NCBI GenBank assembly: GCA_903848275.1 | Contig: CAINGB010000006.1 | Span: 1-41,124 of the forward strand | Direction of reading: 5' to 3' | Source of the DNA: Candidatus Uhrbacteria bacterium | GTDB lineage: Bacteria; Patescibacteriota; Patescibacteriia; UBA9934 | DNA: 41,124 nt | Part shown: piece after piece, positions 13,272 through 39,317 of the stretch | Layout of the letters: each line of letters begins with the position of its first letter | Position numbering within the stretch: the stretch's first letter is position 1 | Translations under genes and position numbers: made by a program | The notes under the pieces: generated by a model | The model's input: the letters and a program-made list of their open reading frames with translations, nothing else | Told to the model about the DNA's origin: nothing | Database searches by the model: none

Positions 13272-13386
13272 TGATGGGTTAAGTAGTTTCTCACTGCGCG
13301 CCGTCAACCGCACCAGCCGTCTCACCTCGTATGACTCGGGCGCTGGCGCAGGGCCGGTGCTCGCTCGGCACTGCTTAACCACATCA
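13272..13386 (-). other. Structured intergenic element A
   Basis: The core at 13302-13356 aligns without gaps to 39221-39275 (47 of 55 identical). Its 8-bp stem (positions 9-16 with 41-48 of the core) shows two compensatory changes between copies, and the loop TCACCTCGTATGACTCGGG is identical in both. Outer arms TGATGGGTTAAGTAG (13272-13286) and CTGCTTAACCACATCA (13371-13386) pair with one bulge and one mismatch or wobble. The A11-C46 mismatch in the stem becomes U-G if read from the minus strand, so I give the minus strand, with low certainty. Confidence 0.75.
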
Positions 13387-13589: not shown

Positions 13590-13749
13590 GTCAGCGCGAG
13601 ACTCGGGTAGTCCTGCTCCTCGCTCAAGGCCTCAGCCCAGAAACTCCTTACAGAATGACTCGCTGGTAAAGAAAAGCCAATGCCGCGAGTCAAGAGTTTC
13701 TCGGGTCGGCCTCTCGACTCGTCGCAGAACCACCCTTGTCTTCGCTGAC
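13590..13749. other. Non-coding stretch with nested inverted repeats
   Basis: No convincing ORF. GTCAGCG (13590-13596) pairs with CGCTGAC (13743-13749). Inside, AGAAACTC (13639-13646) pairs with GAGTTTCT (13694-13701) and GACTCGC (13657-13663) with GCGAGTC (13685-13691), so the last two are nested and nearly contiguous. It fills most of the gap between two small genes. Confidence 0.6.
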
Positions 13750-13795
13750 TACTGCCGTGCGATCGCCATCCGTCACTCCGCCTAATATAAAAATT

Positions 13796-15759: not shown

Positions 15760-15836
15760 TGAATATTGTTTAGAGTGTAGTGAGCCTGAGCCTTGTAGGA
15801 GCGAGCGACTGTCGCCAGTCCTCATGACGACGCCAA

Positions 15837-15990
15837 GACCGGCCCGTGTCAATCTCTCCCGAGGTAACGTAGGGCTTTAAGAGAGTGACCGGTCGCCATT
15901 CCAAAATCTACTCAGTTAAGAAATGTGGCGGTCGTGTCTGCAGCTAGGAATGAGGGCTGGCGCAGTCGCGAGCGATTGCCTAGATTTCTT
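15837..15990. other. Non-coding stretch with inverted repeats before cysS
   Basis: The 279-nt gap between 15759 and 16039 has no good ORF. GACCGG (15837-15842) pairs with CCGGTC (15889-15894), with CTCTC (15854-15858) and GAGAG (15881-15885) inside. A second structure has right arm CCTAGATTTCTT (15979-15990), whose complement is split into AAGAAAT (15918-15924) and CTAGG (15944-15948). The first hairpin has CGGCCC and CCGAG at places similar to element A/B, but the match is weak. Confidence 0.5.
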
Positions 15991-20531: not shown

Positions 20532-22109
20532 ATGGCAGAGACACTTTACCGTAAATATCGCCCGGCTCAGTTCGCCGACGTGGCTGAACAGGAACACGTT
20601 GTTAAGACAATCCAGAATCAAATAGCCAGCGGGACATTGGCTCATGCCTACCTATTCTCTGGTCCACGCGGTATTGGCAAAACGACGATTGCTAGGTTAC
20701 TCGCCAAGGCGGTTAATTGTCTCAACCGAAAAGTAGGAGAGAGTGAACCTTGTGGTACTTGTGACCATTGTTTAGCATTTGCGGAAGGGCGATTTTTGGA
20801 TACGGTGGAGATTGATGCGGCGAGTAATACTGGCGTCGACAACGTGCGCGAGAATGTGATTGAGAATGTGCGCTTTGTGCCGCAACAAGGTAAGTACAAG
20901 GTCTTTATCATCGATGAAGTTCACATGCTTTCGACGTCGGCCTTTAATGCGTTATTGAAGACGTTGGAAGAACCGCCAGCACACGTTATTTTCATTTTAG
21001 CGACGACTGAATTGCACAAAATTCCCGCCACGATTATAAGCCGTTGTCAGCGTTTTGATTTTCACAAAATTGCGGCGCCAGAGATGATTGTCCGTTTGTC
21101 AGCGATTACTAAGAAAGAAGGTATTGAGATTGACGAGGAAGTATTGCGGGTGATTGCTAAAATTTCTGAGGGTTGTTTGCGTGATGCGGAGAGTTTGCTC
21201 GGCCAGGTGTTGTCGCTTGGTGACAAGAAAATAACGGTAGCGTTGGCGGCGTCTATTTTGCCGGTGACGACGATTGAGTTGGTGCGTGAATTGATCACAG
21301 CGATTGAGCAGAAGGAGGTGAAAGCGGCGCTCGATAAGATCAGTGCGTTTGTGGCTGATGGTGGATCCGTTAAGCATTTAAACGATGAGTTGATTGAAGA
21401 GATTAGAGACGATTTAATGAGCTCGGTAGGCGGGAAGAAAGCGACGTTTGAAGCCGTGGTTTCTCGCCGTTTGCTTGATTTGCTGTTGACGGCACGGGGT
21501 AGGCATTCACTCGCGACTTTGCCACAGTTGCCGCTCGAGTTAGCGTTAGTCGAGTTTGTGTTAGGGGATGAGATGTTAGGGCGGGGGACGGTGACCCCGC
21601 CTATTGTTGCGCCATCAATTACGCCAGTTGTGATATCGATGCAATCGAGGGCTGTAGCTGGTAATATTGGGAGTTTAGTTTCTCCGCGACCAGTTGCTGT
21701 CGAAAAAGTAATAGGCGGGGTCACCGCCCCCCGCCAGAACGAGCCGATATCCAATACGACCGATAACATTGATGGCGCAGCACCGATTACTTTTACGCTC
21801 GCCGAGATTCAAGATAAGTGGGAACGTTGCTGCGACTATGTGGCGGACCGGAATATTGCCTTGCCCATGGGTTTGCGGACGGGTAAGCCGAGTGCGATTA
21901 ATGGCGCAAAGTTGACGATTACTTTCCCGTACGCTTTTCATGCCGATGCACTAAAGGACGGCAAGAACTTGCGCTTGCTGGAAGATGCGATTGCCAGCGT
22001 GATGATGCAGCGGCCGATGATTGTGACGGAAGTGGTGTCGATTCCAGATAAAGAAGAGGAAACGGTGGCGATGTTTACGGATGCTTTTGGCGGAGTTGTC
22101 GTAGAATAA
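20532..22109 (+). CDS. dnaX: DNA polymerase III subunit gamma/tau
   Basis: A 525-aa clamp-loader ATPase. Walker A GPRGIGKT lies at residues 44-51, zinc-binding cysteines at C74, C77 and C80 (CGTCDHC), the DEVHML Walker B near 130, and the sensor region ISRCQRFDF near 170. Domain III ends around residue 345. A low-complexity Thr/Pro/Val linker (~345-410) contains two copies of a 25-nt palindromic element in opposite orientation (codons 350-358 and 393-401). The last ~110 residues are a C-terminal domain. Confidence 0.94.
   Translation: MAETLYRKYRPAQFADVAEQEHVVKTIQNQIASGTLAHAYLFSGPRGIGKTTIARLLAKAVNCLNRKVGESEPCGTCDHCLAFAEGRFLDTVEIDAASNTGVDNVRENVIENVRFVPQQGKYKVFIIDEVHMLSTSAFNALLKTLEEPPAHVIFILATTELHKIPATIISRCQRFDFHKIAAPEMIVRLSAITKKEGIEIDEEVLRVIAKISEGCLRDAESLLGQVLSLGDKKITVALAASILPVTTIELVRELITAIEQKEVKAALDKISAFVADGGSVKHLNDELIEEIRDDLMSSVGGKKATFEAVVSRRLLDLLLTARGRHSLATLPQLPLELALVEFVLGDEMLGRGTVTPPIVAPSITPVVISMQSRAVAGNIGSLVSPRPVAVEKVIGGVTAPRQNEPISNTTDNIDGAAPITFTLAEIQDKWERCCDYVADRNIALPMGLRTGKPSAINGAKLTITFPYAFHADALKDGKNLRLLEDAIASVMMQRPMIVTEVVSIPDKEEETVAMFTDAFGGVVVE
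21581..21605 (-). repeat. 25-nt palindromic element, copy 2 (inside dnaX)
   Basis: Exact reverse complement of 12832-12856. It is read in frame and encodes about RGTVTPPI of the DnaX linker. Confidence 0.88.
21710..21734 (+). repeat. 25-nt palindromic element, copy 3 (inside dnaX)
   Basis: 24 of 25 positions match 12832-12856, same orientation; encodes about VIGGVTAPR. Together with copy 2 it forms a 25-bp inverted repeat with a 104-nt loop within the dnaX message. Confidence 0.88.
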
Positions 22110-22146
22110 GTGAATACCCCTGGGATATAAACCAGGGGTATTCACT
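22109..22146. terminator. Bidirectional terminator between dnaX and the rib genes
   Basis: A perfect 15-bp stem (AGTGAATACCCCTGG with its complement) around an 8-nt loop; TATTTT follows on the plus strand and TTATT on the minus strand. It serves both convergent units. Confidence 0.85.
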
Positions 22147-39177: not shown

Positions 39178-39317
39178 ACAATCATCCAAGTGGGAATATT
39201 TCGTATTCCTAGCTGCACCTCGTCAACCGTAACAGCTGACTCACCTCGTATGACTCGGGGGCTGTTACAGGGCCGAGGTTAGCGTCGTCAACGAAATATT
39301 CCCACCTGAATGATTGT
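39178..39317 (-). other. Structured intergenic element B
   Basis: A 27-nt inverted repeat (39178-39204 with 39291-39317, 25 of 27 pairs) encloses the 55-nt core 39221-39275 shared with element A. The core stem GTAACAGC/GCTGTTAC is perfect. Both mismatches of the outer arms (C-A and A-C on the plus strand) become G-U pairs when read from the minus strand, as does the one stem mismatch in element A. CCTCG (39218-39222) and CGAGG (39274-39278) add a further stem. The element ends within 5 nt of the alaS start used here. Confidence 0.8.

What the first reader, a model, noticed from the sequence alone, without database searches (positions are those of the whole stretch)
39178..39317. A structured element in two copies with compensatory base changes
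The 55-nt cores at 39221-39275 and 13302-13356 are 47/55 identical, gap-free. The 8-bp stem keeps pairing through two double changes (C-G to A-T, C-G to T-A) while the 19-nt loop is invariant. Both copies are enclosed by longer inverted arms of unrelated sequence (27 nt at this site). Differing arms with conserved pairing argue against a simple MITE and for selection on structure. Four mismatches considered: three become G-U when read from the minus strand, one (outer arm of copy A) favours the plus strand. This may be an undescribed RNA or DNA hairpin family.
Basis: seen in the sequence. Interest (0 to 1): 0.75.

Follow-up and report, generated by a model that had tools for sequence, protein, structure and literature searches.

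The report
Replication-polar hairpin repeats in Uhrbacteria
A genus of uncultured bacteria carries about 30 copies per genome of an undescribed folded DNA element whose paired strands mutate together and which always points the same way relative to DNA replication, suggesting a mobile or signalling element that works as a single folded strand.

Summary
The core is not a pair: a search of the whole genome finds 30 copies, and two other species of the genus (Candidatus Uhrbacteria) carry 9 and 32. Two further species of the genus and 285 other genomes of the class have none. Across 42 copies the structure pairs at 98.8% of cells with 109 double changes; a tip hairpin with tandem G·A pairs caps it. 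The strand that folds is the window's minus strand: in 24 unrelated sets of outer arms G·T mismatches exceed A·C by 41 to 6 and A·G exceed C·T by 20 to 0. The unexpected result is polarity: at 66 of 69 copies the folded strand is the C-rich (lagging) strand, whatever the direction of nearby genes; the three exceptions are one composite locus with two inverted cores. Copies at orthologous sites keep pairing while the arms change. The same GTAG-tagged outer stem carries at least three other apical cores. No Rfam family matches; the RAYT genes examined have other, shorter hairpins or none. Best reading: a non-autonomous, replication-coupled mobile element acting as a folded single strand of DNA. 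Partner enzyme unknown; an RNA-level role is not excluded.

The parts
39178..39317 (-). Copy A, whole element; folded strand is minus
   Evidence: fold z -10.3; model R1 match 39215-39287 minus, 95.7 bits
39178..39204 (.). Copy A outer arm, plus-strand left
   Evidence: 27-nt inverted repeat, 93%; its two mismatches are both G.T on minus
39291..39317 (.). Copy A outer arm, plus-strand right
   Evidence: same inverted repeat
39217..39222 (.). P2 helix of copy A, plus-strand left (ACCTCG)
   Evidence: covaries across 42 copies
39274..39279 (.). P2 helix of copy A, plus-strand right (CGAGGT)
   Evidence: covaries across 42 copies
39223..39228 (-). Conserved internal-loop side, GGTTGA on minus
   Evidence: GGTTG invariant in 42 copies
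39269..39273 (-). Invariant internal-loop side, GCCCT on minus
   Evidence: GGCCCTG invariant in 42 copies
39229..39236 (.). P3 helix of copy A, plus-strand left (GTAACAGC)
   Evidence: 100% of cells paired, 5 of 8 pairs with double changes
39261..39268 (.). P3 helix of copy A, plus-strand right (GCTGTTAC)
   Evidence: 100% of cells paired
39244..39258 (-). Tip hairpin CC-GA-GT-CAT-AC-GA-GG on minus, tandem G.A pairs; variant GC-GA-GT-ACG-AC-GA-GC in other copies
   Evidence: nearly invariant in A1; closing pair changes on both sides in diverged copies
13272..13386 (-). Copy B, whole element including its own unrelated outer arms
   Evidence: fold z -3.7; R1 match 13296-13368 minus, 91.3 bits
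13321..13340 (-). Tip of copy B, identical to copy A
13590..13770 (-). Related element with apical core 2 (GGCCGACCCGAGAAA..TTTCTGGGCTGAGGCC)
   Evidence: sequence; same core in L210, L211, L224, L227
15789..15975 (+). Related GTAG-tagged element with apical core 3; polarity opposite to the core-1 copies in this window
   Evidence: exact tag match, sequence, fold of L207

Best explanation
This is one copy of a genus-specific family of about 115-220-nt intergenic elements that fold as one strand (window minus) into a long hairpin: a variable outer stem, P2, a conserved asymmetric internal loop, P3, and a tip hairpin with tandem G.A pairs. Shown: copy number, structure, folded strand, retention at orthologous sites, and strict orientation with respect to GC skew. 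Inferred: the elements are non-autonomous mobile DNA that is recognised as a folded single strand and was inserted, or survives, only in one polarity relative to the replication fork, in the way that IS200/IS605 elements and attC sites depend on the strand exposed at forks. After insertion the structure is kept, so either mobility continues or the host uses the copies.
For: 30, 9 and 32 copies in three species, 0 in two other species of the genus. Near-identical arms shared by many copies show past spread. The site before alaS is filled in two species and empty in a third, and a site filled in G000 (L021) looks empty in G004. Folded strand is C-rich at 29/30 and 37/39 copies, nearly equally where genes run with it (35/38) or against it (31/31); orientation within a contig concordant in 67/75 pairs, 0/20000 at random; the skew holds over 20-kb stretches. 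Minus-strand folding: G.T 41 vs A.C 6, A.G 20 vs C.T 0, one arm set per cluster. Compensated pairs between orthologous copies. A GTAG-tagged 5' foot that can form two tandem G.A motifs is shared by elements with different cores and occurs in one genome of another family.
Against: No transposase, relaxase or recombinase is linked to the elements. The folded strand is the complement of the lagging-strand template, whereas IS200/IS605 act on the lagging-strand template. No target-site duplication could be defined. Wobble tolerance (about 8% G.T in the arms) is typical of RNA. In situ conservation is more than a dead mobile element needs.
Confidence: 0.5

Rival explanations
1. A structured RNA: the minus strand is transcribed and the RNA, not DNA, is the working molecule, either as a small RNA family or as an RNA intermediate copied into the fork.
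For: G.U-type wobble tolerated on one strand only; tandem G.A motifs and a conserved asymmetric internal loop; covariation. Reverse transcriptases exist in the genus.
Against: Little or no orientation relative to genes but strict orientation to GC skew; no conserved promoter or terminator was noticed at the element edges by eye, not tested formally; the reverse transcriptases look DGR-type by eye and also occur in a species without the element.
Confidence: 0.25
2. A host chromosome signal: a polar landmark that marks replication direction, comparable in use to KOPS or Chi, but read through a folded strand.
For: Near-absolute polarity; retention and compensatory change at orthologous sites.
Against: Absent from two species of the same genus and from all other class genomes sampled; sites differ between species; other hairpin types occupy the same sites.
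Confidence: 0.15
3. Classical REP elements mobilised by RAYT.
For: RAYT genes present; a GTAG tag 5' of the stem in many copies.
Against: In seven of the RAYT loci read, the gene lies between its own short perfect hairpins; none of the loci read has a core-1 or foot element beside the gene. RAYT genes also occur in species without core 1. Window copies A and B lack the tag.
Confidence: 0.07
4. Quasipalindrome template switching alone copies one arm onto the other and mimics covariation, without selection.
For: Arms at orthologous sites are replaced in concert.
Against: It predicts no strand asymmetry of mismatches, yet G.T:A.C is 41:6 and A.G:C.T 20:0; it would erase the invariant non-complementary internal loops.
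Confidence: 0.03

Closest known systems
REP / BIME elements with RAYT (GTAG-tagged palindromic repeats)
   Same: Dispersed intergenic hairpins with conserved unpaired positions; many copies here carry a GTAG tag 5' of the stem; a precedent exists for REPs inside longer palindromes (PMC3733652)
   Different: About 115-220 nt rather than 20-50; no RAYT linkage; strict replication polarity; variable but paired arms; interchangeable apical cores
IS200/IS605 ends
   Same: Strand-specific hairpins with unpaired bases; replication-coupled (PMC6006769)
   Different: No transposase gene inside or beside; folded strand is opposite to the lagging-strand template
Integron attC sites
   Same: Structure conserved while sequence varies (own knowledge); orientation of the folding strand relative to replication matters (PMC5371416)
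   Different: Single dispersed copies, no cassette array seen; attC core boxes and integrase not tested for
MITEs / ERIC-like intergenic palindromes
   Same: Dispersed, non-coding, imperfect palindromes
   Different: Arms differ between copies; no target-site duplication shown; structure-level constraint on one strand

Membership tests
REP (RAYT-associated) | GTAG-type tetranucleotide directly 5' of the hairpin | tested here: inconclusive
   Present in many tagged copies (17 tag sites in G000 within 2 mismatches), absent from window copies A and B
REP (RAYT-associated) | Short palindrome of 20-50 nt | tested here: not met
   Elements are about 115-220 nt
REP (RAYT-associated) | Cognate RAYT gene flanked by copies | tested here: not met
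   RAYT loci read in the genus carry other hairpins or none
IS200/IS605 derivative | Left and right ends around, or derived from, a Y1 transposase gene | tested here: not met
   No element beside any of the Y1 genes read
IS200/IS605 derivative | Active folded strand on the lagging-strand template | tested here: not met
   Folded strand is C-rich at 66/69 copies, i.e. the complement of the lagging template if G-rich marks leading
MITE | Constant terminal inverted repeats with target-site duplication | tested here: inconclusive
   Arms fall in 24 clusters; the empty alaS site gives no clear duplication
cis-regulatory RNA (riboswitch, leader) | Constant orientation relative to the regulated gene | tested here: not met
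   Both orientations occur
Known RNA family | Match to an Rfam covariance model | tested here: not met
   Only tRNAs in the window; best match to the element has E 9.7, far below its gathering score
attC site | R and L boxes, integrase, cassette array | not tested
   Only the absence of an array at the loci read was seen

The most novel reading that the evidence does not exclude
A new class of replication-polar structured element: a modular hairpin platform (a GTAG-tagged foot with repeated tandem G.A motifs) carrying interchangeable apical modules, spread through a folded single-strand intermediate at replication forks by an enzyme not yet known, and used by the host after insertion.
Probability: 0.25. 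Interest if true: 0.85.

Novelty: new variant of a known kind. Interest (0 to 1): 0.64.

Why it matters
Dispersed palindromes are common in bacteria, but which strand works, and whether structure is kept after insertion, is rarely readable from sequence. Here the mismatch spectrum names the folded strand, and the orientation of nearly every copy follows replication and not transcription. That gives a clean natural system for asking how folded single-stranded DNA arises, moves and is retained at replication forks, in a lineage where I found no description of such an element, and it points to an unidentified hairpin-recognising protein.

Tried and rejected
Rfam at gathering and permissive thresholds: nothing. 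The viral collection: no copy. The species collection: hits in Uhrbacteria only, plus three single hits that do not fold alike. RAYT linkage: rejected after reading the RAYT loci. Reverse-transcriptase linkage: RT genes are present, look DGR-type by eye, and occur also in a species without the element, so they do not track it. Riboswitch or leader RNA: rejected by mixed gene orientation. Template switching as sole cause: rejected by strand asymmetry. Two early scripts failed because of a wrong pattern and were corrected. A search for target-site duplications at the empty alaS site was not conclusive. Papers on Uhrbacteria or Parcubacteria palindromes: none relevant.

Full report
OBSERVATION. 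The two cores are 47/55 identical, and the stem changes described are present. The 27-nt arms are found as an inverted repeat, and the element folds far better than shuffled sequence on either strand. A search of the window's own genome with the 20-nt tip gave 28 copies, with none for the reversed control; all share the same architecture.

STRUCTURE AND FOLDED STRAND. Forty-two distinct copies from three species were aligned on the window's minus strand. P2 and P3 pair at 96% and 100% of cells; the whole structure has 109 cells with double changes against 33 in shuffles and a covariation score of 0.424 against 0.156, and sliding the partners destroys it. The internal loop (GCCCT/GGTTGA) and the tip are nearly invariant. 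On minus the tip reads CC-GA-GT-CAT-AC-GA-GG, a hairpin with two adjacent G.A pairs; diverged copies change the closing pair on both sides while keeping GA/GA. In the core, wobbles are 35 on minus against 4 on plus, though 28 of them are one column. In the outer arms, one representative of each of 24 arm clusters gives G.T 41 against A.C 6 and A.G 20 against C.T 0. A strand that must fold explains this asymmetry; arm-to-arm copying during replication would not produce it.

DISTRIBUTION. A covariance model finds 30 copies in the own genome, 9 and 32 in two species of the genus, and none in two others, and none in 285 further genomes of the class under stricter filters. A pattern scan found none in viral contigs. 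A pattern scan of one genome per species in a large collection finds it only in Candidatus Uhrbacteria MAGs, apart from three chance-like hits.

RETENTION AND TURNOVER. About a dozen loci are shared between species whose flanking DNA is roughly 70-85% identical. At these the core is kept while the arms change: pairs altered on both sides but still paired number 5-13 in most comparisons (1 in three of them), together with broken pairs. Before alaS the element lies between a TACAAT box and the start codon in two species and is missing in a third. At other shared sites related species carry different long hairpins, or a similar outer stem with another apical core.

A LARGER FAMILY. Many elements share a foot on the folded strand, GTAG-GA-GC-GA-GC ... 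GC-GA-GC-GA-C, which can form two tandem G.A motifs. Under this foot sit at least four apical cores, one of which is ours; two of the others lie in this window. The tag occurs 17, 12, 26 and 5 times in four species of the genus; the complete foot with a 105-135-nt interior was found in one genome of another family of the order. Window copies A and B lack the foot and have private arms.

POLARITY. Copies on one contig nearly always point the same way: 67 of 75 pairs, never reached in 20,000 random draws (this set includes tagged elements with other cores and leaves out the inverted partner cores of the composite locus). Using local GC skew with the element removed, the folded strand is C-rich at 29 of 30 copies in G000 and 37 of 39 in the other two species; the three exceptions are the inverted second core of one composite locus shared by all three species. 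The result holds where genes run with or against the folded strand. Twenty-kb stretches show that the skew is regional. If G-rich marks the leading strand, as in most bacteria (general knowledge, not tested here), the folded strand has the sequence of the nascent lagging strand. Among other cores, core 2 agrees where skew is clear, while core 4 in G002 and core 3 in this window each show an exception.

MECHANISM. Polarity to replication without polarity to genes argues for a DNA-level process. IS200/IS605 elements insert at the lagging-strand template, and attC sites behave differently according to the template that carries the folding strand. Here the folding strand is opposite to the lagging template, so either insertion follows a different route, or copies in the other orientation are lost because a stable hairpin on the lagging template is unstable. 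These cannot be separated with the present data. RAYT proteins are present, but the RAYT loci read carry other hairpins or none, so REP membership is not claimed.

LIMITS. All genomes are draft assemblies and several copies lie at contig ends. GC skew is a proxy for replication direction. Copies are related, so cell counts are not independent; the cluster-level test and the orientation test address this in part. The covariance model was built from many of the copies it then finds, so its scores for those are not independent evidence. No expression data were available. E-values from the model are rough.

Noticed in passing
window 13590-13770: Related long hairpin element with apical core 2, on the minus strand.
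   Followed up: partly
window 15789-15975: GTAG-tagged element with apical core 3, polarity opposite to the core-1 copies in this window.
   Followed up: partly
L048-L051; 22 sites in the genome: Self-complementary CCACGTCGGTCGCGACCGACGTGG with paired variants; nested inside three core-1 copies next to a repeated CAGG.
   Followed up: partly
L228, L230, L231, L233, L234, L239, L059: REP-associated (Y1) transposase genes each flanked on both sides by a private short perfect hairpin; candidate RAYT-REP pairs.
   Followed up: partly
window 22109-22146: Perfect hairpin AGTGAATACCCCTGG..CCAGGGGTATTCACT, the same arms as the hairpin beside a Y1 transposase gene in L232.
   Followed up: no
L096-L100, L104, L108: Tip of core 1 carries a nested hairpin insertion around CTGGCCAGCTGAGCTGGC in G000 and G004 copies.
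   Followed up: no
L265-L270: Up to three reverse transcriptases per genome, most about 350 aa, DGR-like by their motifs.
   Followed up: no
L010 / L035 / L038: Composite locus with two cores in inverted orientation about 125 bp apart, conserved in three species; the only core-1 exceptions to the polarity rule.
   Followed up: partly
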